A stretch of 64,000 nt of DNA, from NCBI RefSeq assembly GCF_000802305.1, contig NZ_JTDK01000011.1, positions 62,001-126,000 of the forward strand. Direction: 5' to 3'. Position 1 is the first letter of the stretch; every line of letters starts with the position of its first letter. Made by a program: the position numbers and the translations under genes. Origin of the DNA: Microbacterium mangrovi. Its GTDB lineage: Bacteria > Actinomycetota > Actinomycetes > Actinomycetales > Microbacteriaceae. The notes under the pieces are model-generated. The model saw nothing but the letters and a program-made list of their open reading frames with translations. It searched no databases and was not told the origin of the DNA. Below are positions 27,183 to 59,066 of this stretch, piece by piece.

Positions 27183-27881
27183 TCAACGCAGCGCGGTCGA
27201 GACCGGCTCGGTGCCGCCCTTCCGAGCCAGCTCCGCCGAGGCCAGGTCGAAGACGCGGTCGCATCGGTCTGCCACTCGACGGTCGTGCGTCACGACGAGG
27301 AGTGTCTTCTCGTACTCCTCCTGCAGAGTGAGCATCTCGGTGATGGCGACCTCTGCCAGAGCATCGTCGAGAGCGCCGGTGGGTTCGTCGGCGAGGATCA
27401 GTTCTCCGGGTTTGAGCAGGCACCGTGCGAGTGCGACGCGTTGCCGCTCGCCGCCCGAGAGGGTCATGACCTTGTCCTGCGCCACGTGCTGGAGCCCGAG
27501 TCTGGTCAGCAGCTCCATGATCTCCTTCTCTTTGCTCGCGCGGCGCAACTTCACACTGTGCAGCCCGATGAGGATGTTCTCCATCGCGGTCGCCGAGTTG
27601 ATCAGCGCGAACGACTGGAACAGGTAGTTGACGTGCTTCCGGCGCAGGGCAGTGGCTGCGGCGCTGTTCATGCGGGGCAGTCGTTCGCCGCGGAGACGGA
27701 TCGTTCCCGACGTGGGGCTGTCGAGGAGCCCGACGATGTTGAGCAGGGTCGACTTTCCTGAACCTGACGGCCCGACGATCGCGACGGACTCCCCGTGCGC
27801 CACCTGCAGGTCGAGCCGGTCGAGAACGGTGCGGGACCCATACTTCTTCGTGAGGTTCTCGATCGTGAGCAGAGCGTTCAC
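27183..27881 (-). CDS. ABC ATPase of a bacteriocin-type export/immunity system
   Basis: This 232-residue ATPase resembles the LolD/MacB/SalX group: Walker A GPSGSGKST (about 37-45), the NYLFQSFALI Q-loop, signature LSGGERQR, Walker B LILADEPTGALD and the histidine in VVTHD. The GTG start follows an AGGAG by seven bases and comes nine bases after the stop of the large membrane protein, so it completes a three-gene unit with that protein and the small secreted peptide. It would power the membrane protein. The gene has lower GC and almost no GGATGCC motifs, unlike its neighbours. Confidence 0.88.
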   Translation of the reverse strand: MNALLTIENLTKKYGSRTVLDRLDLQVAHGESVAIVGPSGSGKSTLLNIVGLLDSPTSGTIRLRGERLPRMNSAAATALRRKHVNYLFQSFALINSATAMENILIGLHSVKLRRASKEKEIMELLTRLGLQHVAQDKVMTLSGGERQRVALARCLLKPGELILADEPTGALDDALAEVAITEMLTLQEEYEKTLLVVTHDRRVADRCDRVFDLASAELARKGGTEPVSTALR

Positions 27882-27889
27882 GGCGGCTC

Positions 27890-30091
27890 CTATTCTTTGA
27901 GCGCGGCACTCAGCTGCAGACGCGAGTACCGCCGGATGAGGAAGGTGATCAGTGCCATCTGGATCGCCAGCAGCATGACGTTGCCGAAGATCGCGCTCTT
28001 GGATTGCAGCAGGATCGAGGCGAGAACGGCGATCGCCCCGGTGGTGCCGACGAGCACGATGGGCACGATGAAGAGCCGCGTCAGCGAGTAGCCGAGCATC
28101 CGTTTGACGGCGAGTGCTTCGCGGTACGTGGTGGAGAAGAGCCTCAGCAGAGCGACGAGCGTGACCACCACGAGGATGAGGGCGAAGAGGATCACGCCGC
28201 CGAACAGCTGCAGGGTCGTTTGGATCGTCTTGGTGAGGCCCGCGATGAACTCGCTGACCGCGAGGAACTGCACCCGGTTGTCGTCGAGGTGGTACCTCGC
28301 GAGGTAGGCGATGCTGGTGTACTTCTGCGCGGCCGCCGCACTCAGCTTGACGTAACTGTTCTCGAGGCCGACCGCATTCAAGCTTTCGCTTTCGTAGGGA
28401 ACCATGTTCTCGGGTGTGATGACCAGGATGACCGGGTCGGTCACAGTCGCAGGCAGCTTCGGGTCGGTGGCCCATGAAAACAGCGGAGTCTTCGGTGAGT
28501 AGTTCTTGAATCCGATCTTCTCGCCGTTGTAGTACTCGGTGCGGATCGACGGATCACTCCACTCGTGCGTGTCTTCGGTCACCCATCCGCGCATTGCCTG
28601 CTTGGCCGCATCAGTCCAGGTATCGGGGAGGAGGAACACCCGCTCTCCCCGTTTCGCGCGAGCTACGACGTCGGCACTGACCGGGAACCCTTGGTCGGCG
28701 AGGGAGCTCGGAGAGGCTGCCATGTACCAGAACGGCTGGGTCGGCGGGGACTTGTAGACACCGGCCCATCCTTCAATGACTTCGCGGTCGAAGTAGGCAG
28801 TGTGGACCAGGGTGACGCCCGGCTTGTCCGCGATCGAGCGATACCAATGGTAGAAGTCCTTGGCCAGCTGACTGGACTGGCCGGTGATACTGGCGTCATC
28901 GTTGCCGGACTTCAGCTGGTACAGGATCTGCTGGTTCGCCACCCCCGCCCAGACTCGGCCGACCTCGGTGAGCTTGCCCGCTTCCCTCACGGGGCCGTCG
29001 ATGTAGGCGAACAGGACAGACACGGCGGCCGTCGCCAGTAGCGATGAGGCCGCGACGGCCCAGAGCAGAATTCGCTTGGAGTAGCGTCCGAGAATCGCCG
29101 TGACGGGCTTGACGGAGCTGAGCACTGCCGCGCCGATCGCGATGGCCACGAGTGCGGGAGCGGCTCCGACCACCGCGCCGCTCCACGCGGCTGCGAGAAG
29201 CGTCGCGTTCAGCTGGTACCCATGCGCCAGTGCGACGGTGAGCAGCATCGACAGCACAACCGCCACGGCAGTGCTGACCAGCACTGAACGAAACATGGTG
29301 ATCCCAAATCCCCACCGTGATCTCCCGAGCAAGAGATGCACACCGAGAACGGGCAGCGCGCGCACCGATTCGAAGATGAGGATGAGCAGCAGGAGGATCG
29401 ACGCCGCAATCATGCAGCCCAGCAGGATGCTGGGCAGCAGACCGCCGTCGGCGACCTGCCCATGCAGGGGGGAGACCATACTTTCGGGTGAGCGGCCGGT
29501 CGCGTTCGCAAGGGACCTCAGCAAGTCCGCCACCTCCGCGTGGTCGGCGCCGATGACCCGATAGGTCCCGTTGATCGTTCCCGACACGTCGACGAGATGC
29601 GCGAGCTGAACCACAGAAATTCGAGGAGCGAATGTGAGTTCTGGAATGCTGGCGATCACGTCTGCGGCGTTGGCATCCAAACCGATCGACTTCGTAGGAC
29701 CGCTCGTGAGGAGATTCGTGACCGTGACGGAATCAAACAGCGTTGTGTCGAGAAACTTCAGTTCAAGGGCGGCTGGAGGCGTATGCGGACTTGCGGTCAT
29801 CCCCACCCTGAGACCGGCAAGCCCGCCGTCCACGCTGGTCGATTGAGGATCCACGCGAACGATCGCGCGCCCGTGAGCGTCCGTAAAACGACCGAATGCA
29901 GAGAGTACGTCTGCCGATCGATCCTCGGACACGCCTGACAGGTAGATCGGCGTTGATCCGGCCGGATACCGGTCGACTTCTTGCACCAGGCGGTTGCCCT
30001 GGTTGAGGACGAGGATGAGGCTCGCCGTTGCTCCGATCAGCACGACAAGGATCGAACTTGCAAGTTTCGACCAGAAGGACATGGGCGTCAC
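27890..30091 (-). CDS. Bacteriocin-associated integral membrane protein (bact_immun_7tm type)
   Basis: This 733-residue protein has one N-terminal transmembrane helix (about 8-28), an extracellular stretch to about 215, a group of helices (about 220-370), a second long extracellular domain (about 370-610) and three C-terminal helices. Size and seven-helix plan match the family described as putative immunity proteins that accompany lactococcin 972-like bacteriocins (TIGR01654/DUF1430), which is a relative of FtsX/MacB permeases. It is followed by its ABC ATPase. I use the GTG start; an ATG three codons on is equally possible. The recognised bacteriocin is absent; instead a 36-residue secreted peptide is encoded just upstream. 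Confidence 0.75.
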   Translation of the reverse strand: MTPMSFWSKLASSILVVLIGATASLILVLNQGNRLVQEVDRYPAGSTPIYLSGVSEDRSADVLSAFGRFTDAHGRAIVRVDPQSTSVDGGLAGLRVGMTASPHTPPAALELKFLDTTLFDSVTVTNLLTSGPTKSIGLDANAADVIASIPELTFAPRISVVQLAHLVDVSGTINGTYRVIGADHAEVADLLRSLANATGRSPESMVSPLHGQVADGGLLPSILLGCMIAASILLLLILIFESVRALPVLGVHLLLGRSRWGFGITMFRSVLVSTAVAVVLSMLLTVALAHGYQLNATLLAAAWSGAVVGAAPALVAIAIGAAVLSSVKPVTAILGRYSKRILLWAVAASSLLATAAVSVLFAYIDGPVREAGKLTEVGRVWAGVANQQILYQLKSGNDDASITGQSSQLAKDFYHWYRSIADKPGVTLVHTAYFDREVIEGWAGVYKSPPTQPFWYMAASPSSLADQGFPVSADVVARAKRGERVFLLPDTWTDAAKQAMRGWVTEDTHEWSDPSIRTEYYNGEKIGFKNYSPKTPLFSWATDPKLPATVTDPVILVITPENMVPYESESLNAVGLENSYVKLSAAAAQKYTSIAYLARYHLDDNRVQFLAVSEFIAGLTKTIQTTLQLFGGVILFALILVVVTLVALLRLFSTTYREALAVKRMLGYSLTRLFIVPIVLVGTTGAIAVLASILLQSKSAIFGNVMLLAIQMALITFLIRRYSRLQLSAALKE

Positions 30092-30110
30092 CGTTGCTCT
30101 ATGCAGGGGC

Positions 30111-30129
30111 GGCTGGGGCCGCCTCAGCC
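30111..30129. repeat. Short hairpin between peptide and permease genes
   Basis: GGCTG and CAGCC flank a 9-nt GC-rich loop in the 40-bp gap between the peptide stop and the permease start. It could limit read-through so that the peptide is made in excess of the membrane protein, a common arrangement in peptide operons. That role is inferred. Confidence 0.4.
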
Positions 30130-30131
30130 GG

Positions 30132-30242
30132 TCAGCCTTTGGCGTTCCAGTAGACCGTCGCCGCCTGCGCCACGCCTGCGGTGCCTGCCACGAGCGCGCC
30201 GGACAGCAGCACGACGGAGAGGGTCTTCTTGAATGCCTTCAT
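30132..30242 (-). CDS. Short secreted peptide precursor, 36 residues
   Basis: A complete small gene encodes a classical Sec signal peptide: basic start MKAFKK, hydrophobic core LSVVLLSGALVAGTAGV, and an AQA cleavage site after residue 27. The predicted mature product is only ATVYWNAKG (nine residues; eight if cleavage is one later). It is the first gene of the peptide-permease-ATPase unit, which places it where lactococcin 972-like precursors are found, but it is far too short for that family and lacks its conserved core. It may be a peptide signal, a very short bacteriocin or a truncated precursor. The ATG has GAAG-rich sequence upstream as a weak ribosome site. I know no family for it. Confidence 0.6.
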   Translation of the reverse strand: MKAFKKTLSVVLLSGALVAGTAGVAQAATVYWNAKG

Positions 30243-51137: not shown

Positions 51138-51339
51138 TATCGTTGAGGTGTCGGCTTCGAGGCACCGCTTTATCCAGGCGGAAATCGTTGTTTGTCGCCT
51201 CGTGGGGCCGATGTCTCGCACTGTTCTGTGCGATTGACCATCATGTGAATGGCCCCCGGCCGACGGATGTCCGGGATGATCAGGCGTTTCCGCGTTCCTG
51301 ATCGCTGTTCTCGTGCGAGAACTCCGAAAGGACACACCC
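51138..51339 (+). promoter_or_regulatory. Promoter and long structured leader of the DEAD-box helicase gene
   Basis: A -10-like TATCGT is at 51138-51143, predicting a 5' leader of about 190 nt. The leader contains several inverted repeats, including TCGCAC-N6-GTGCGA (51216-51233) and GATCAGG-N12-CCTGATC (51278-51303), and has no open frame of note. Long structured leaders are usual for cold-shock helicases and allow control by temperature or by the helicase itself. The role here is inferred. Confidence 0.55.
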
Positions 51340-53559
51340 ATGCCCAAGAATCACAAGCAGGGCGGAAGCCGAGCCCAGAGCTTCGACCCGCGCTACGCGA
51401 AGAAGAGCGGCTACCGCCCCGGCGGCCAGCGCGACTTCGGACGTGACGAGCGCCGTGACGGTGGTCGTGACGACCGTCGGGATGCCCCGCAGAAGGCCGG
51501 TTCGCGCAGCCCGAACCACCGCGGTTACCGCCCGGCCGAGACCGACGGCGCCGCGAAGAAGTCCCGCTGGACGGCATCCGACCGCGCCGGCCGCGACGAG
51601 GCCCGCGGCATCCGCACCCACTCCCGCGACGCGCGCGGCGGACGTGACTTCGGCGACCGTCCGGCTCGTTCGTTCGACAACGACCGGCCGCGCCGTGAGT
51701 ACGGCAATGACCGTCCGACCCGTTCGTACGACAACGACCGGCCGAAGCGCTCGTATGACGACCGTCCCCAGCGTTCGTACGGCAACGATCGTTCGCAGCG
51801 GTCGTACGACGACCGTCCCCGTCGTGAGTACGGCAACGACCGTCCGCAGCGGTCGTACGGCACTGACCGCCCGGCTCGTTCGTACGACAACGACCGTCAG
51901 AAGCGCTCGTACGACGACCGTCCTCGTCGTGAGTATGGCAGCGACCGTCCCCGTCGTGAGTACGGCAATGACCGTCCCGCACGTTCGTACGACAACGACC
52001 GTCCGAAGCGCTCGTACGACGACCGTCCGGCTCGTTCGTACAACGACCGGCCCGCTCGTTCGTACGACAACGACCGTCCGAAGCGGTCGTACGACGACCG
52101 TCCTCGTCGTGAGTACGGCAGCGACCGCCCGCAGCGTTCGTACGACAACGACCGTCCCCGTCGCGAGTACAGCAACGATCGTCCGGCTCGTTCGTACGAC
52201 AGCGACCGCCCGAAGCGTGACGACCGGGCCGTGCGCCCGAACCGCTCCGACTGGAACGCGACCCCGAAGCAGCACGACGAGCATGTCGACGTGGTGCACG
52301 AGCGTCTACAGGCCGAGGCGATCGCCGCGGAGACCGTCGCCGGTCAGGGCTTCGCCGAACTCGGCCTCGGCGACAACATCGTCCGCGCGCTCGCCGATCT
52401 GGGGGCGGCATCCCCGTTCCCGATCCAGGCCGCGACGATCTCCCCGATCCTCGAGGGCAAGGACGTCCTGGCGCGCGGCCGCACCGGCTCGGGCAAGACG
52501 ATCGCGTTCGGCGCCCCGCTCGTGGAGTCGCTGCTGCGCGCCCGCGCCGGCAAGCCCCGCGAGTTCGGTCGCAAGCCGACCGCGCTGATCCTCGCCCCGA
52601 CCCGTGAGCTGGCGCTGCAGATCGACCGCACTGTGCAGCCGATCGCGCGCAGCGTCGGCCTGTTCACCACGCAGATCTACGGCGGTGTGCCGCAGGCGCG
52701 CCAGGTGGGCGCGCTGAAGAAGGGCGTCGACATCATCGTCGGCACCCCGGGCCGCATCGAGGACCTCATCAACCAGGGCAAGCTCGATCTCTCCGACATC
52801 CGCATCGTCGTGCTCGACGAAGCCGACCACATGTCGGAGCTCGGCTTCCTCGAGCCGATGCAGCGCATCCTGCGTCTGGTCGGCACGGGGCTCGACACCC
52901 CCACGCAGAAGCTGCTGTTCTCGGCGACGCTCGACCGCGAGGTCGCCGCGCTGGTGGACGAGTTCCTCGTGGAGCCGTCGGTCTACGAGGTCGCTGGCGA
53001 AGACCAGGACTCGGGCACCATCGACCACCGCGTGCTCGTCATCGACCACCGCGACAAGGCGGAGCTCGTGGAGCGGCTCGTCGACCGTGACGGCAAGACC
53101 CTCGTGTTCACGCGCACTCGGGCGTACGCCGAGATGCTCGCCGAGCAGTTCGAGGATGCCGGCATCAACGCCGTCGCCCTCCACGGTGACCTCAACCAGG
53201 CCAAGCGCACGCGCAACCTGAAGCGCCTCACCGACGGCCGCGTCAACGTGCTCGTCGCCACCGACGTCGCCGCCCGCGGCATCCACGTCGACGACATCGA
53301 CCTCGTCGTGCAGGCCGACGCTCCCGACGAGTACAAGACGTACCTGCACCGTGCCGGCCGCACCGGCCGTGCCGGTCGTTCGGGCACCGTCGTGACGCTC
53401 ATTACGCGTCAGCGCCGCCGTCGCATGACCGAGATGCTCGAGCGCGCCGAGATCGAGGCCCCGTTCGAGGACGCCCGCCCCGGTGACGACCTCATCGAGG
53501 AACTCGCCGGCAACCTGCCGACCGACGCGGAGCTCACCGGGGCGGCTCCCGCCGAGTAA
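51340..53559 (+). CDS. DEAD-box RNA helicase with long repetitive N-terminal region
   Basis: This 739-residue protein combines a disordered, highly charged N-terminus (about 1-315) with a complete DEAD-box core. The core motifs are ARGRTGSGKT (I), PTRELALQ (Ia), TPGR (Ib), DEAD (II), SAT (III), ATDVAARGIHV (V) and HRAGRTGRAG (VI). The N-terminus has about twenty degenerate copies of RSYDNDRP/RREYGNDRP/KRSYDDRP, rich in Arg, Tyr, Asp; in most helicases such RGG-like tails are C-terminal. It should drive RNA binding or condensate formation. The ATG follows AAAGGA by eight bases. Only the N-terminal tail is unusual. Confidence 0.93.
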   Translation: MPKNHKQGGSRAQSFDPRYAKKSGYRPGGQRDFGRDERRDGGRDDRRDAPQKAGSRSPNHRGYRPAETDGAAKKSRWTASDRAGRDEARGIRTHSRDARGGRDFGDRPARSFDNDRPRREYGNDRPTRSYDNDRPKRSYDDRPQRSYGNDRSQRSYDDRPRREYGNDRPQRSYGTDRPARSYDNDRQKRSYDDRPRREYGSDRPRREYGNDRPARSYDNDRPKRSYDDRPARSYNDRPARSYDNDRPKRSYDDRPRREYGSDRPQRSYDNDRPRREYSNDRPARSYDSDRPKRDDRAVRPNRSDWNATPKQHDEHVDVVHERLQAEAIAAETVAGQGFAELGLGDNIVRALADLGAASPFPIQAATISPILEGKDVLARGRTGSGKTIAFGAPLVESLLRARAGKPREFGRKPTALILAPTRELALQIDRTVQPIARSVGLFTTQIYGGVPQARQVGALKKGVDIIVGTPGRIEDLINQGKLDLSDIRIVVLDEADHMSELGFLEPMQRILRLVGTGLDTPTQKLLFSATLDREVAALVDEFLVEPSVYEVAGEDQDSGTIDHRVLVIDHRDKAELVERLVDRDGKTLVFTRTRAYAEMLAEQFEDAGINAVALHGDLNQAKRTRNLKRLTDGRVNVLVATDVAARGIHVDDIDLVVQADAPDEYKTYLHRAGRTGRAGRSGTVVTLITRQRRRRMTEMLERAEIEAPFEDARPGDDLIEELAGNLPTDAELTGAAPAE
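51650..52230 (+). repeat. Tandem repeats encoding the RSYDNDRP tail
   Basis: Units of 24-30 bp such as CGTTCGTACGACAACGACCG repeat with drift through this stretch. Unit length stays a multiple of three and third positions vary, so selection acts on the peptide. Confidence 0.85.
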
Positions 53560-53648: not shown

Positions 53649-54848
53649 TCAGGGGTCGATGCGTTCGCGCAGCGTGGTGTCCGGGCTGGTGCGGGCGAGC
53701 CGTGTGATCGGGATCAGCGGAGTGATGCCGAAGACGAGAACCGGCATGGTGATTCCTGCAATCAGGAACACGAACCAGTTCGTGGGGAATCCGATCCCAG
53801 TCGTCATGGCCACGACGGTCGCGATCACCGCTCCCCCGATGATCCCCACTGCGCCGATGATCCCTCCGATGCCTATGAGGATGCAGAGGAACAATCCCAC
53901 GACTTGTCGTCGAGTCCATCCGAGCGCGATCAGCAGACCGATCGAGCCGCGACGCGTAGCGAGCACTGCAGAGCCGAGCACCCAGGCGAGGATTGTGAGG
54001 ATGACGCAGAGCGCGACGATGGCGATGAGCGAGACGGACCGCATCAGCTGCTGTGTGACGGTGAGGCCGGTCAACAGGCTCGCGAAGCTCGAGGCGCTGT
54101 ACCCCTGGGTCCGGGCTTCGCTGATCACGTCGCCCAGAGCGGCCGTGGAGTCTGCAACCGCATATGCCTTCGGATAGACGTAGTTCTGGTCGAACCAGGC
54201 GGGGCTTTGCCCACGGTCATCAGCGACAACGAGCCGGAGCAGATCCGGCGCGCCGTAGGCTGTGCCCGGAACGTCGAGCGAGGCAGCTGCGCTGTCGTAC
54301 ACGCCGACGATCCGGATGGGTGTATATGTCCCGGTGCCAGTTCCATCCCCGTCGAGCGCGCGCTTGGCGTGCTCGAGGACGACGCTGTCTCCGACCCTCG
54401 CATGCAACGCATGCAACGTCGAGCTGTCAACGATCACCTCGCCGGCGCCGCGCGGTTCGCGTCCGTCCGTGAGGACGGGTTGGATCGCCGGAACTCGTGA
54501 TGTGAGGGCTACCCCGACCGCGGGGGTGTTCGACGATTGGTGGATCGCGACGCTGGCCTGGGTCCACCCGGTGATCTCCTGAACATGGTCCAGGTGCCCC
54601 GCGCTCTCGATCGCGGCCGTGGTCAGCTCCTTGGGGCTCGCGGACGTTCCATAACTGTCCAACTCGATACTGCGAAGTGCCGTGGCGCCGAGACCGTCGG
54701 GTCGCTCGGCCTGGCTGTCTGCATAAGCGGAGGCGGCTCCGAGAGTGCCGATGAACACAGCAACCGCAATGCTCGACAATGCGATCGCAACCGTGAACCT
54801 CTTGAGCATGGGAGCGAACAGCCACCCGGCCCGCGTGAGCGTCGTCAA
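53649..54848 (-). CDS. FtsX/MacB-like ABC permease
   Basis: This 399-residue permease has one N-terminal helix (about 18-42), an extracellular domain (about 45-265) and three C-terminal helices (about 272-385), the FtsX-like plan of MacB-type exporters. I chose a TTG start overlapping the ATPase stop (TTGA) with GGACGGAG upstream; other frames of the N-terminus lack a start. It is the last gene of a tightly coupled operon with an ABC ATPase, a lipoprotein and a small secreted protein. MacB-type systems act at the cell surface without moving substrate through the membrane; that may apply here. The gene looks foreign (lower GC, few GGATGCC motifs). Confidence 0.8.
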   Translation of the reverse strand: MTTLTRAGWLFAPMLKRFTVAIALSSIAVAVFIGTLGAASAYADSQAERPDGLGATALRSIELDSYGTSASPKELTTAAIESAGHLDHVQEITGWTQASVAIHQSSNTPAVGVALTSRVPAIQPVLTDGREPRGAGEVIVDSSTLHALHARVGDSVVLEHAKRALDGDGTGTGTYTPIRIVGVYDSAAASLDVPGTAYGAPDLLRLVVADDRGQSPAWFDQNYVYPKAYAVADSTAALGDVISEARTQGYSASSFASLLTGLTVTQQLMRSVSLIAIVALCVILTILAWVLGSAVLATRRGSIGLLIALGWTRRQVVGLFLCILIGIGGIIGAVGIIGGAVIATVVAMTTGIGFPTNWFVFLIAGITMPVLVFGITPLIPITRLARTSPDTTLRERIDP

Positions 54849-55477
54849 CGGAATGCTCCGTCCGCAAGGCAAATCCGATCTGTCACGAAGGGGCCGACCC
54901 TAGCGTCATGTGAGGCGACCAGGACTGCACGCCCCGCTTCGGCCTGCGCGGCAAGCAAGCGTCCGACCGCCCGCGCGTTCTCATCGTCGAGGCTCGCTGT
55001 CGGCTCGTCGACAACGAGGTTGGCGGGTGCATTCATCAATGCCCGAGCGAGAGAGACGCGATGCTGTTGGCCGCCGGAAAGCAGATTTCCCCGGGTGTCG
55101 ACCATGTGCTTGAGGCCGACCTCGCTGAGCAGACGACGAGCTGCACGACGATCGTTTTGGATGCCGGCGAGCATGACGTTCTGGACCGCTGTCAATTCTC
55201 CGAGCAGCAGTGGCGACTGGGGCATGAATCCCACTCGTACACCGCGCGCCGAACGCGCCTCCGCGCGGCCGCGACGGATGTCGTATTCCTGGCCGTCGAG
55301 GAGCACCGTTCCTCGGTCGGGGTGGATCAGCAATGCGGCGAGTCCGAGGACAGTGGACTTCCCGCTTCCGGATTCTCCCGACAGCCAGACCACCGACCCG
55401 TTCGGTACCCGAAGCGTCAGATCGCGCAGGACGGTCCGGTCGCCATACGACTTCGCTATTCCGTTGAGCTCGATCAT
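54845..55477 (-). CDS. ABC ATPase of the MacB/LolD type
   Basis: This 210-residue ATPase has Walker A GESGSGKST, signature LLSGGQQHRV, Walker B LVVDEPTASLD and the switch His in ASHDARV. The Q-loop reads FMPQSP. It overlaps both neighbours by four bases (lipoprotein stop with its ATG; its stop with the permease TTG) and so must be made together with them. Confidence 0.9.
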   Translation of the reverse strand: MIELNGIAKSYGDRTVLRDLTLRVPNGSVVWLSGESGSGKSTVLGLAALLIHPDRGTVLLDGQEYDIRRGRAEARSARGVRVGFMPQSPLLLGELTAVQNVMLAGIQNDRRAARRLLSEVGLKHMVDTRGNLLSGGQQHRVSLARALMNAPANLVVDEPTASLDDENARAVGRLLAAQAEAGRAVLVASHDARVGPFVTDRICLADGAFR

Positions 55478-57093
55478 CGATCGTCCCTGTCGTACTCGAC
55501 GCCGAATTGGGTGTTGACCAGCAAGGCCGTCTGTGCGAGGTCGCAGTCCAGGGGATGGCGGGGATCACCTGTCGCACGCGCCATCGCGGGGTGCCCTGTG
55601 CAGCCGATCCGATGCGAGACGATCGCCGCGACGGCCGCTACCTGCTGGCCCCAGTCGACATCCGCGCCGTCGAGGACTGCTAGTCGATAGAACAGCCAAG
55701 GACTGGTGATCCCGTCAGATGTGATCGCTGAGGGAAGGTGAACGACATAGGAGTCGTAGTAGGTCAGGATCTCATCGGAGTTTGCGAGGACGTGGTCCTG
55801 CGCCAGGACAAGGATCGCGTCGACGACGCCCTCGTTCGCGTTGGTGACGAGCGCCGGTTTGACCGTCACCCCGGGGACTGTGATCCCGGCATTGAGCAGC
55901 GCCTCGAGGATCGCGGCGAGCGACCGGGCGTCGTCCACGGAGTAGCTCCGTTGCTCGATTCGACGGACGATGTCGTCGCGGATCGCCTGTTGCGGGGTCG
56001 TCAATGGATGGTGTCCTGCCACGATTGCCAGTGCGCGCGCCTTCGTTGCATCGTTCATCGACTGATCCCGCTCAAGAGAATCCTCGACTGAGTGAAATGT
56101 GCCATGAGCGTCCGCAAGAGCTGTAAACGCGTCCCCAAGCGCCAGTTTCGCCTCGTAGGTGTTGTCGATCGTCCCGACAAACTCGACATGCTGCCGGTAG
56201 AGGCCCGACGAGCGGTCGAGCCTGCTCTGCGCACGATGGAGGTACGCCGCGAAGAGTTCTGGTCCACCGCCGCCCGCGTGGATCGCGCGAGCGAGAGCAG
56301 CCGCTTCGACGTCGTTGCCATCGGCGAGCTTGCTGAGCCGAGAACTCGCGGCCTGCATGACCTGGTCGATCGGTGGCCCTTCGAGCATGTACCCGCGTCG
56401 ACTCAACTCAACGGACGCCCACACGTCGAGTGCCCAGCCAACCGGCCCGTTGTGGGAGTTCTCGGCAATCTGCGATCGCTTGTACTGCGTGCATTGAAGT
56501 TGTTCACGTTCGCATGCGTCGACGACGCGCCAACGCGCGAGGGAGTTGAGTGACTTGACCCTGGAAACCGCGCGCAGAGCGGCCCTCACCGCGACGGATT
56601 TGTGATGAGTCGACTCGTCGACGACGGCGGCGATCCACAGCGCGGTGACGGCGTCGTCGGTCACGGGATCCGTGCGCGGTAACGGGACGGCGCTGACGGG
56701 AGCCACCTTGTGCTGGGACAGCGCGAGAAGCGCGAGCGAGACGCTCCGCCACCGGGCGGGGATCGCGCGATTCGCACTGTTGTTCAAGACGTGCGGGGAT
56801 GCGGCCACACTCATATCCACTGGGTGAGAAGCGAGTCCCACATCAGTTGCCGCCGATAGCAGGACTGCTGAGGAATAGAGATCGATCGCAGGCTGCCTTC
56901 CAACGGCCGGGTTGAAGAAGAGTCCCGAATTATCGATCAACGACCGAAATTCTCCTGCGAGGCGTGCTTGCGTCGCCGCCTGCGCCGAGGAGAGCGTGCT
57001 CTCTGGCTGTTTCACACAACCAGAGAGCGCTCCCGTCAGGCACACAACTAGGGCGAGGAAGACTAAACCAACTCGCGTGTGCTTTGACCGCAC
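55474..57093 (-). CDS. Large lipoprotein of unknown function in an ABC operon
   Basis: This 539-residue protein starts with a lipoprotein signal (lipobox LSGC, C26), so it is anchored outside. The rest is almost all helical with alternating Ala/Leu-rich segments, and one repeat-like element (VGTIDNTYEAKLALGDAF) recalls the alpha/alpha-toroid fold of prenyltransferase or cyclase-like proteins; this is only a resemblance. Two cysteines near the end (in IGCTGH and PLDCDL) may bond. It lies between the small secreted protein gene (GTG one base after its stop) and the ABC ATPase, and probably acts as receptor or chaperone for the secreted product. I know no family for it. Confidence 0.7.
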   Translation of the reverse strand: MRSKHTRVGLVFLALVVCLTGALSGCVKQPESTLSSAQAATQARLAGEFRSLIDNSGLFFNPAVGRQPAIDLYSSAVLLSAATDVGLASHPVDMSVAASPHVLNNSANRAIPARWRSVSLALLALSQHKVAPVSAVPLPRTDPVTDDAVTALWIAAVVDESTHHKSVAVRAALRAVSRVKSLNSLARWRVVDACEREQLQCTQYKRSQIAENSHNGPVGWALDVWASVELSRRGYMLEGPPIDQVMQAASSRLSKLADGNDVEAAALARAIHAGGGGPELFAAYLHRAQSRLDRSSGLYRQHVEFVGTIDNTYEAKLALGDAFTALADAHGTFHSVEDSLERDQSMNDATKARALAIVAGHHPLTTPQQAIRDDIVRRIEQRSYSVDDARSLAAILEALLNAGITVPGVTVKPALVTNANEGVVDAILVLAQDHVLANSDEILTYYDSYVVHLPSAITSDGITSPWLFYRLAVLDGADVDWGQQVAAVAAIVSHRIGCTGHPAMARATGDPRHPLDCDLAQTALLVNTQFGVEYDRDDR

Positions 57094-57094
57094 G

Positions 57095-57556
57095 TCACAC
57101 GTGAGCGGAAACTGTGATCAGCGTCCCGCCCACCTTGGTGGACGCAGTTGAGTAGACGCCGATGTACAGCGTCGACCAGGACGCACATACGGTTCCCGAG
57201 ATGCCGGCGTACGACGCTCTCGTATTCTTTACTCGAGCGGCGGGGGAAGAACCGTTGTTGCCGGATACGGACACCCCGACGCCCTTGATCGATGCAGATG
57301 CGCCAATACCGATCGGATCCCAATCCACATCGTTCTGGATGTAGGACAGCGATTTGGTTGCCTTAGCGCTGGTCAGGAAAGAACCGCAGTTGTCGCCCCC
57401 CAGAATTGTCTGCCTCCACACATTCGCTGTCAGTTTGCCTCCGCTGAAGCCTTTCGTGTTTGAGTCACTTTGTGCATAGGCCGCGCCAGGCACCAGGAGT
57501 GCTCCGGCGACCGCGGCAGCGAGCGACATCCCCAAGATTCTCGACTTTGTCTTCAC
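57095..57556 (-). CDS. Small secreted protein leading the lipoprotein-ABC operon
   Basis: This 153-residue protein has a Sec signal peptide (MKTKSR basic start, hydrophobic core, AYA cleavage after residue 28) and a mature part of about 125 residues rich in Ser, Gly, Thr, Asn. Two cysteines (C57 and C124) could form one disulfide. It is not lactococcin 972-like and I know no family. A strong GAGGAG site five bases before the GTG start, and its place first in the operon, suggest that it is made in quantity. It may be a bacteriocin-like protein, a toxin or a surface factor, with the ABC system for export or self-protection. Confidence 0.75.
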   Translation of the reverse strand: MKTKSRILGMSLAAAVAGALLVPGAAYAQSDSNTKGFSGGKLTANVWRQTILGGDNCGSFLTSAKATKSLSYIQNDVDWDPIGIGASASIKGVGVSVSGNNGSSPAARVKNTRASYAGISGTVCASWSTLYIGVYSTASTKVGGTLITVSAHV

Positions 57557-57857: not shown

Positions 57858-58913
57858 TCAGAACAGCCGGGTGGTGCCGGCATCCACTGCGGGGCGGCGG
57901 CCGGTGCGGATCACGGGGCCTGGACGCGGCGCGGTGAACCGCGGCTGCTCCTCTTCGAGGCGGCCGTCGAGCCCGTATCGGCGGACGAGGGGGCGCACCC
58001 GTTTCGCCAGCCAGGCGCGGTACGCCTTGGGCGCCTGCGTCGCTGCTCCCGGATAGAGCGCCCGATACGACGACAGCAGTTCCGGATGCTCCCGCGCGAG
58101 CCACTGCTGGAACCAGGGCTTCACCCCGGGCCGCAGATGCAGCGCGCCGAAGACGACCCGCGCGGCCCCGGCATCCCGGATGCGTCGCAGGGCATCGTCA
58201 AGGGAGGGGATCGAATCCGTGAGGTGCGGCAGGATCGGCATCAGGAAGGCGGTCACCGCGAAGTCGGCATCCGTCGCGGCGCGTACCGTCTCGAGTCGCG
58301 CGTTCGTCGTCGGGGTGCCGGGCTCGATCGAGTGCTGGAGGGCATCGTCGAACACCGCGATCGACATGGCCAGGCTGATGTCGACGGTGCCCGCGGCATC
58401 CTTGATCAGCGGAAGGTCGCGTCGCAGCATCGTCCCCTTGGTGAGGATCGAGAACGGCGTGCCCGAGTCGGTGAGCGCCGAGATGATTCCCGGCATCAGC
58501 CGGTAGCGACCCTCGGCGCGCTGATACGGGTCGGTGTTCGTGCCGAGGGCGACGTGCTCGTGCTGCCAGGACCCGCGGCTGAGCTCGCGTCGCAGTACCT
58601 CCGCGACATTGACCTTGACGACCACCTGCGAGTCGAAGTCGCGGCCGGCATCCAGATCGAGGTACTCGTGGGTGCCACGAGCAAAGCAGTAGACGCATGC
58701 ATGCGTGCAACCGCGATACGGGTTCACGGTCCAGTCGAACGGCATCGCGGATGTCTGGGGTACGTGGTTGAGTGCGCTGCGGGCGAGCACCTCGTGGAAT
58801 GTCATGCCGGCGAACTCGGGCGTGGTGACGGAGCGCACCAGCCCGCTCAGGTGCTCAAGACCGGGCAGTGCATCCGTGTCCGTGGCATCCAGCTCCTGTC
58901 CGTTCCACCGCAT
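57858..58913 (-). CDS. Rv2578c-family radical SAM protein
   Basis: This 351-residue protein has the radical SAM Fe-S motif C69-THA-C73-VY-C76 and the following FARGTHEYLDLDAG typical of the actinobacterial Rv2578c family (related to spore photoproduct lyase-like proteins). The reaction is unknown. I start at MRWNGQELDATDTDALPG, where family similarity begins; TTGACA-N17-TCTACT lies just upstream, with the -10 only seven bases before the ATG, so the transcript should be leaderless. An ACACA/TGTGT dyad overlaps the promoter. Confidence 0.88.
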   Translation of the reverse strand: MRWNGQELDATDTDALPGLEHLSGLVRSVTTPEFAGMTFHEVLARSALNHVPQTSAMPFDWTVNPYRGCTHACVYCFARGTHEYLDLDAGRDFDSQVVVKVNVAEVLRRELSRGSWQHEHVALGTNTDPYQRAEGRYRLMPGIISALTDSGTPFSILTKGTMLRRDLPLIKDAAGTVDISLAMSIAVFDDALQHSIEPGTPTTNARLETVRAATDADFAVTAFLMPILPHLTDSIPSLDDALRRIRDAGAARVVFGALHLRPGVKPWFQQWLAREHPELLSSYRALYPGAATQAPKAYRAWLAKRVRPLVRRYGLDGRLEEEQPRFTAPRPGPVIRTGRRPAVDAGTTRLF

Positions 58914-58920
58914 AATCTTG

Positions 58921-58949
58921 AGTAGAACACAGATACGATAGTGTGTCAA
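58921..58949 (-). promoter_or_regulatory. Promoter of the radical SAM gene with dyad
   Basis: Reading the minus strand, TTGACA and TCTACT are 17 bp apart. Within the spacer the plus-strand sequence ACACA-N10-TGTGT (58927-58946) forms an inverted repeat, a possible operator. Confidence 0.65.
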
Positions 58950-59066
58950 TCGAAGATCGAACATACCTGGGAGAGGGCTGGAACCCGCCGCCGCAGAGCG
59001 TGGGACTGAGTATCATGGATGCTGGAACTTGATCCCATCTACTCGACGGCGAGAGGCAGGCGCGAC

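What the first reader, a model, noticed from the sequence alone, without database searches (positions are those of the whole stretch)
53649..57556. Four-gene operon of secreted protein, lipoprotein, ABC ATPase and FtsX-like permease with no named family
All four genes touch or overlap (stop and start one base apart or sharing four bases). The first encodes an abundant-looking secreted 125-residue protein with two cysteines, the second a 539-residue lipoprotein I cannot assign, the last two a MacB-type ABC pair. The logic resembles bacteriocin production with self-protection, but neither secreted component belongs to a family I know. The operon is nearly free of the host GGATGCC motif (one near 55164 in about 4 kb) and lower in GC, so it is probably transferred.
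Basis: partly seen in the sequence, partly recalled or inferred. Interest (0 to 1): 0.78.

Follow-up and report, generated by a model that had tools for sequence, protein, structure and literature searches.

The report
Likely bacteriocin operon with self-protection
This actinobacterium carries a rarely found, probably transferred four-gene cassette that secretes a small protein of an undescribed family, together with a membrane-anchored lipoprotein and a pump that probably protect the producer from it; it looks like a new type of antibacterial weapon, but its activity is untested.

Summary
The four abutting genes exist as described. The secreted protein (SEC) and lipoprotein (LIPO) match no Pfam or NCBIfam family. 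SEC relatives were found at eight other loci: six have the same order SEC-lipoprotein-ATPase-permease (one with a second lipoprotein); G072 has the parts rearranged, with SEC split over two frames; G696 has SEC-LIPO only. Two further loci keep the ABC pair without SEC, as an immunity-only remnant would. The module sits where 21 of 29 genus relatives examined have helicase and radical-SAM genes close together, and is the window's poorest stretch in GC and GGATGCC: probably acquired. The predicted SEC model (pLDDT 81) is a beta-sandwich with an inserted amphipathic hairpin, its most conserved part. Its best structural row is the MspA porin rim, tied with Ig-like adhesin domains; leukocidin-type pore formers fill 21 of 50 rows, but no sequence relationship was found. 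Most likely: a Sec-exported antibacterial protein, possibly pore-forming, with LIPO and a MacB-type ABC pair as self-protection. The logic resembles lactococcin 972, but SEC is not a member. Activity is untested.

The parts
57095..57556 (-). SEC: secreted 153-residue precursor (GTG start), mature part about 125 aa, 12.6 kDa
   Evidence: relatives at 8 other loci; mass
57473..57556 (-). Sec-type signal peptide of SEC (cleavage after AYA judged by eye, no predictor run)
   Evidence: mature N-terminus inferred
57242..57319 (-). mature residues 52-77 (DPIGIGASASIKGVGVSVSGNNGSSP), putative membrane hairpin
   Evidence: mostly low-confidence part between two long predicted strands; 17 of 26 columns invariant in five close members (window included) against 24 of 99 elsewhere
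55474..57093 (-). LIPO: 539-aa lipoprotein, predicted alpha/alpha toroid
54845..55477 (-). ABC ATPase (210 aa), best NCBIfam rows FtsE and the lactococcin-972 transporter class, both below cut-off
53649..54848 (-). FtsX/MacB-type permease (probable start TTG 54848; ORF open from 54872)
51313..53559 (+). left flank: DEAD-box helicase; marks the junction, not part of the system
57858..58964 (-). right flank: radical SAM protein; marks the junction, not part of the system

Best explanation
A mobile toxin-immunity cassette. SEC is exported by Sec, folds outside the cell as a beta-sandwich (probably disulfide-tied) with a long hairpin, and kills or inhibits related Gram-positive bacteria, possibly by oligomerising and inserting the glycine/serine-rich hairpin into their membrane. 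LIPO, probably made by coupled translation and anchored on the outer face of the producer's membrane, binds SEC; the MacB-type ABC pair uses ATP to push SEC off the membrane, together protecting the producer. Shown: gene order, conservation, ABC class, loci with the ABC pair but no SEC; probable acquisition. Predicted: folds and hairpin. Inferred: killing, pore formation, immunity roles.
For: SEC, lipoprotein, ATPase and permease contiguous and in the same order at 7 of 9 SEC loci, window included. An eighth (G072) has SEC (split), permease, a protein in the lipoprotein position and ATPase side by side in another order. Two loci keep a window-type ABC pair without SEC, one of them with LIPO fragments; both genomes also carry a complete, divergent operon. 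None of six other SEC/ABC loci tested is at the helicase/radical-SAM junction; that junction is narrow (74-1341 bases) in 21 of 29 genus relatives. Lower GC and motif-poor. ATPase 32% identical to the lactococcin 972 ATPase, whose orf2-orf3 could encode the immunity ABC transporter (PMC4055356, passages). MacB-type transporters give resistance to antimicrobial peptides in Gram-positives (PMC5985334, passages). SEC model: MspA rim Z 9.3, 105 aligned, 3.5 A; 21 of 50 rows are leukocidin/haemolysin-type pore formers, Z 6.9-8.2, 114-117 aligned. Hairpin tip is the most conserved part.
Against: No activity data. G696 has SEC-LIPO beside pheS/pheT without the ABC pair and no strong permease match elsewhere (best E 1e-10), so the ABC pair is not strictly required. 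MspA Z 9.3 is tied with Ig-like adhesin domains (8.8-8.9); the tool's note says best Z 7-8 is usual for models without a clear match; Foldseek's best hit is a gamma-adaptin ear at E 2.2e-3. Profile comparison finds no similarity to 24 MspA-family sequences. Hydrophobic alternation is only mildly unusual: 4-5% of shuffles match it in four proteins; in the other three it is not unusual, and in two of these the longest run (tied in one) lies outside the hairpin. By recall, each predicted hairpin arm is short for a membrane span.
Confidence: 0.55

Rival explanations
1. SEC is a surface or matrix protein (adhesin, fibre or cell-envelope channel); LIPO and the ABC pair are its dedicated assembly or release machinery.
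For: SEC also matches Ig-like adhesin domains (4b5z Z 8.9). MacB-type ABC pairs can move lipoproteins and serve cell division (PMC5985334, passages). SEC-LIPO without ABC in G696 makes LIPO the closest partner.
Against: The ABC pair without SEC at two loci would then have no cargo. Patchy distribution and low-GC insertion fit a competition trait better. No sorting signal seen in SEC by eye.
Confidence: 0.15
2. A lactococcin-972-like bacteriocin: the beta-sandwich binds a cell-wall precursor and blocks wall synthesis, with no pore.
For: Same plan: Sec signal, all-beta protein, ABC ATPase nearby; lactococcin 972-like proteins are described as beta-sandwiches that interact with lipid II and are not predicted to form pores (PMC11796350, passages).
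Against: No sequence similarity between SEC and lactococcin 972 or between the permease and its orf2 protein. The most conserved part of SEC is an amphipathic hairpin, though that could also be a binding loop.
Confidence: 0.2
3. SEC is a pore former aimed at eukaryotes (protists, insects, plant cells) and the ABC pair is incidental or protective.
For: The structural rows include many pore formers active on animal cells.
Against: A dedicated lipoprotein plus ABC pair is not expected if the producer's membrane is not at risk; sequence searches find no relation to those toxins.
Confidence: 0.06
4. SEC is a secreted signal or decoy; LIPO and the ABC pair sense it (BceAB-like sensing).
For: MacB-type transporters can be sensors (PMC5985334, passages).
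Against: No regulator gene lies inside the seven same-order operons; flanking regulators were not searched for. SEC is a folded 125-residue protein, large for a signal.
Confidence: 0.04

Closest known systems
Lactococcin 972 / streptococcin B systems (pBL1 lcn972-orf2-orf3; scbABC)
   Same: Sec-secreted all-beta bacteriocin followed by a membrane component and an ABC ATPase; ATPase 32% identical
   Different: no SEC or permease similarity; here a lipoprotein and an FtsX/MacB-type permease stand in place of the large orf2 membrane protein
MspA-type porins (PF09203)
   Same: predicted beta-sandwich with an inserted hairpin, best row Z 9.3; two Cys flank the stem in 19 of 24 MspA relatives, neither in 5, and two Cys flank the hairpin in SEC
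   Different: no sequence or profile similarity; 125 residues against a 179-position family model; found in 9 of 148 class genomes, all in family f22, not in the window's genome
Leukocidin/alpha-haemolysin family of beta-barrel pore formers
   Same: 21 of 50 structural rows, Z 6.9-8.2, 114-117 of 125 residues aligned (two rows, 6u4p and 6u3y, assigned by recall because their titles do not name the protein)
   Different: less than half the length of those chains (255-293 residues in most rows), no sequence similarity; Z near the level of common arrangements
MacB/BceAB/LolCDE-type (FtsX) ABC transporters
   Same: FtsX C-terminal domain in 8 of 8 permeases; ABC ATPase
   Different: partner is a lipoprotein without a family; no MacA adaptor family was matched
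CmmAMP-I, a 14-kDa Sec-secreted antibacterial protein of Clavibacter (Liu et al. 2013; name, size and activity recalled, only the title seen in a reference list)
   Same: same bacterial family, size class and Sec secretion (recall)
   Different: sequence not available here (paper not held), so relatedness is untested

Membership tests
MspA porin family (PF09203) | sequence profile match | tested here: not met
   no Pfam row for SEC up to E 1; no MspA row up to E 10 for 8 SEC proteins, window included; hhalign probability 0.1-0.2% against 24 members; no PF09203 match in the window's genome
MspA porin family (PF09203) | rim beta-sandwich with inserted stem hairpin | tested here: inconclusive
   2v9u Z 9.3, 105 aligned, 3.5 A, tied with Ig-like and RTX-like folds at 8.8-8.9
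MspA porin family (PF09203) | octameric pore in a mycolic-acid outer membrane | not testable with these tools
   needs purified protein
Leukocidin/alpha-haemolysin family | sequence profile match | tested here: not met
   no such row in Pfam or PDB sequences
Leukocidin/alpha-haemolysin family | cap-type beta-sandwich with stem | tested here: inconclusive
   Z 6.9-8.2
Lactococcin 972 family | bacteriocin sequence family | tested here: not met
   no such row in Pfam/NCBIfam; hhalign probability 0.1% against Lcn972 of pBL1
Lactococcin 972 family | ATPase of TIGR03608 above cut-off | tested here: not met
   128.6 bits against a cut-off of 254.85
Lactococcin 972 family | large orf2-type membrane protein (TIGR01654) | tested here: not met
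   no such row for the permease or LIPO; no alignment of the permease profile to the orf2 protein
Lactococcin 972 family | Sec-secreted precursor followed by ABC genes | tested here: met
   signal peptide judged by eye
MacB/FtsX-type ABC transporter | FtsX-like permease plus ABC ATPase | tested here: met
   FtsX 33.5 bits (cut-off 25.5), ABC_tran 100.5 bits (cut-off 25); FtsX in 8 of 8 permeases, MacB_PCD in 2 of 8 and just under cut-off in the window's

The most novel reading that the evidence does not exclude
SEC is the founding member of a family of miniature MspA/leukocidin-fold beta-barrel pore-forming bacteriocins of Gram-positive actinobacteria without an outer membrane, neutralised in the producer by a toroidal lipoprotein and a MacB-type ABC pair; it would place mycobacterial porins and animal-cell pore formers next to an antibacterial weapon of the same fold.
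Probability: 0.27. Interest if true: 0.85.

Novelty: new variant of a known kind. Interest (0 to 1): 0.62.

Why it matters
By recall, few protein bacteriocins of actinobacteria are known. Here is a compact module, rarely found but present in several Microbacteriaceae, a Cellulomonas and two Demequina genomes, whose two extracellular proteins match no named family, with complete operons, a rearranged one and immunity-like remnants to compare. If the secreted protein forms pores, it gives a 125-residue natural beta-barrel pore former and a testable link between MspA-type porins and pore-forming toxins; if it does not, it is still a new secreted antagonism system with a lipoprotein/ABC self-protection scheme that can be tested in harmless bacteria.

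Tried and rejected
Sequence searches for a known family of SEC or LIPO gave only weak, scattered rows or nothing: Pfam and NCBIfam (best for any SEC Imm40 at E 0.0094 in 1 of 6), PDB sequences, plasmids by tblastn (no match), viral contigs (8 stretches, none confirmed), BFVD structures (one row under E 0.001, TM 0.36 to a 1144-residue phage protein).

MspA by sequence: rejected. Lactococcin 972 membership: rejected. LIPO as an enzyme: structural rows are mostly terpene cyclases, epimerases, transcobalamin and GH76 at Z 8-13, a level the tool calls common for helical folds. Only two acidic residues (D71, E421) are invariant in the six-row alignment, so I read it as a binding scaffold; not tested.

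Dropped matches: L006-L010 (E 3e-4 to 8e-4) lie in long or unrelated ORFs without a neighbouring permease in the DNA held; L010 keeps a short local match (SEC residues 84-127, 39%) in a 380-residue frame, left unexplained. G061 (E 7.7e-4) is in the same E range; I report it as a look-alike because of its neighbours and do not count it among the SEC loci.

LIPO-position proteins in G115, G072 and G061 show no significant match to the window's LIPO; those of G115 and G1222-C4 are 25% identical in a forced alignment. Some hits are circular because the profile held the sequence found: G072, G115-C1 and G1222-C3 permeases, and SEC of G072, G115, G696, G747, G416. Independent evidence is for SEC of G115 (E 2.5e-10) and G072 (E 1.9e-5), for SEC of G1222-C4 (E 1.5e-14), for two permeases, and for the permeases of G115-C2 and G1222-C4.

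Insertion boundaries: no flanking direct repeat found. Promoter/terminator scan uninformative. Literature listings showed no title on this system; subscription journals are mostly not held.
Full report
What is there. On the minus strand, 57556-53649, four genes abut: SEC (secreted, 153 aa), LIPO (539-aa lipoprotein), an ABC ATPase (210 aa) and an FtsX-type permease. SEC/LIPO are one base apart, LIPO/ATPase share ATGA, ATPase/permease share TTGA if the permease starts at 54848. Pfam and NCBIfam give SEC and LIPO no family. The ATPase is a clear ABC ATPase (Pfam); its best NCBIfam rows are FtsE and the lactococcin-972 transporter, and it is below the cut-off in each of the 25 rows shown of 200. 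The permease has an FtsX domain.

Relatives. In whole-genome samples, the SEC sequence matched 1 of 58 near relatives (own genome only); LIPO 2 of 398 family genomes (own and G416); a two-row SEC profile 4 of 396 order genomes (own, G747, G696 and one dropped match) and 5 of 394 class genomes (own and four dropped matches); a six-row LIPO profile 2 of 44 genomes of G747's genus (G747 and G696 again) and 2 of 257 own-genus genomes (own, and fragments in G1222); a six-row SEC profile 4 of 249 family genomes (own, G115, G072 and the marginal G061). The samples overlap. A pattern scan of the 84,980-species collection gave 56 candidate stretches and 4 confirmed loci: Microbacterium oleivorans, Cellulomonas carbonis, Demequina oxidasica, Leifsonia shinshuensis; it can only see close relatives. 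The window's genome is in the family of G416, that is Microbacteriaceae; the genus is probably Microbacterium (inference).

Gene content. SEC relatives are at nine loci, the window included. Seven have SEC, a lipoprotein-type gene, ATPase and permease in that order on one strand: window, M. oleivorans, C. carbonis, D. oxidasica, L. shinshuensis, G115-C1 and G1222-C4, which has a second lipoprotein-type gene (lipoboxes judged by eye). G072, a single-contig genome of 927,303 bases (by recall the size of Tropheryma whipplei Twist), has SEC split over two reading frames, and divergent from it permease, a 297-aa protein in the lipoprotein position and ATPase. G696 has SEC and LIPO only, followed by genes I read as pheS and pheT, and only weak permease matches elsewhere (best E 1e-10). 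Two loci have the ABC pair but no SEC match in the 17-19 kb held: G1222-C3, with LIPO fragments in two frames, and G115-C2, without LIPO match. Their permeases are 32-50% (G1222-C3) and 32-38% (G115-C2) identical to the five window-type permeases against 21-24% to the divergent pair G115-C1/G1222-C4; in the tree the divergent pair, G072 and G061 are split off with support 0.97. Both genomes also hold a complete divergent operon. This is the pattern expected of immunity genes kept after loss of the toxin, but other histories are possible.

A look-alike. G061 has a secreted 171-aa protein whose SEC match is marginal (E 7.7e-4; hhalign probability 1.4%), then a 311-aa lipoprotein-type protein without Pfam match, an ATPase and a permease (profile E 3e-8) in the same order. 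I do not count it, but it suggests that the layout is wider than the sequence family.

Transfer. Between the helicase stop (53559) and the radical-SAM stop (57858) the window has 4299 bases. Of 37 other genus genomes with a radical-SAM match, 29 loci were fetched; in 21 of these 29 the end of the helicase match lies 74-1341 bases from that gene, and in the other 8 no helicase match was seen within the roughly 1.5 kb of flank held. None of six loci of other SEC/ABC operons tested (L011-L015, L023) shows the helicase or the radical-SAM gene; L088, L089, L091 and L092 were not tested. GC is 0.634 (SEC gene 0.58) against 0.697, and GGATGCC is at its minimum. Acquisition is more likely than loss in all the others, but no boundary repeat was seen.

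Structure of SEC. AlphaFold2 on six natural sequences: mean pLDDT 81, pTM 0.78; high-confidence strands 2-9, 12-20, 29-51, 78-96, 106-114 and 117-124, with a poorly predicted stretch in between the two long ones (blocks of pLDDT 63, 50, 61 over residues 51-80). The VIA-align second look puts the MspA rim domain first (Z 9.3, 105 aligned, 3.5 A), then staphylococcal adhesin domains and an RTX-like domain (8.8-8.9); 21 of 50 rows are leukocidin/haemolysin-type pore formers, Z 6.9-8.2 (two rows assigned by recall). Foldseek alone gives no PDB match at E<=0.001. Residues 52-77 are the most conserved part: 17 of 26 columns invariant in the five close members, window included, against 24 of 99 elsewhere. 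The two halves alternate hydrophobic and small residues around a KG turn, as membrane hairpins do. By shuffling, the longest alternating run is matched in 203-238 of 5000 shuffles for four proteins; for the other three in 912-2917 of 5000, and the longest run lies outside the hairpin in G115 and is tied with one outside it in L. shinshuensis. Two cysteines lie either side of the hairpin in the window's SEC; in 24 MspA relatives two cysteines flank the stem, both present in 19 and both absent in 5. Against this, profile comparison finds no relation to MspA. So pore formation is a lead, not a result.

Structure of LIPO. Predicted alpha/alpha toroid, pLDDT 85; rows are mostly terpene cyclases, epimerases, transcobalamin (Z 8-13), a level common for helical folds. 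I read it as a binding scaffold.

Mechanism and rivals. The best reading is a Sec-exported antibacterial protein with LIPO and a MacB-type ABC pair as self-protection. The closest worked-out analogue is lactococcin 972, whose orf2-orf3 could encode an ABC transporter involved in immunity (PMC4055356, passages read) and whose relative streptococcin B is an active bacteriocin, although the B and C gene functions had not been verified by experiment (PMC11796350, passages read). MacB-type transporters protect Gram-positive bacteria from lantibiotics and a sporulation peptide (PMC5985334, passages read). SEC and the permease are not members of the lactococcin 972 families. Loci with the ABC pair alone favour immunity; the G696 locus without it is the main awkward case and suggests that LIPO alone may suffice, or that the G696 copy is decaying. 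A surface-assembly role and a lactococcin-972-like wall-targeting role are the main rivals.

Novelty. Listings of nine searches showed no title on this system in the open library. I rate it a new variant of a known kind: the plan (secreted toxin plus ABC self-protection) is known, the two extracellular families have no name in the libraries searched.

Noticed in passing
window 27183-30242, minus strand: A second bacteriocin-like locus in the window's other low-GC stretch: a 36-residue ORF with a signal peptide and only about nine residues after it (30242-30132; also the in-frame end of a longer ORF), a 733-aa membrane protein resembling TIGR01654 (39.9 bits, cut-off 189.35), and an ATPase close to TIGR03608 (225 bits, cut-off 254.85). 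Possibly a lactococcin-972-type locus with a tiny or truncated bacteriocin.
   Followed up: partly
L089 8795-12278 (genome G072): A reduced 0.93-Mb genome of the same family keeps the module with SEC divergent and split over two reading frames, then permease, a 297-aa protein and ATPase.
   Followed up: partly
L090 6867-10197 (genome G061): Same four-gene layout with a barely related secreted protein and a different lipoprotein-type protein: the architecture may be wider than the sequence family.
   Followed up: partly
window 51313-52300: The DEAD-box helicase carries a long N-terminal repeat region of the type DRPxRSYDND.
   Followed up: no
L008 about 1070-1917 (genome G1039): Two tandem small secreted proteins with similar cysteine patterns beside peptidoglycan-binding-type proteins; the weak match to SEC (query residues 5-70) was dropped.
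   Followed up: no
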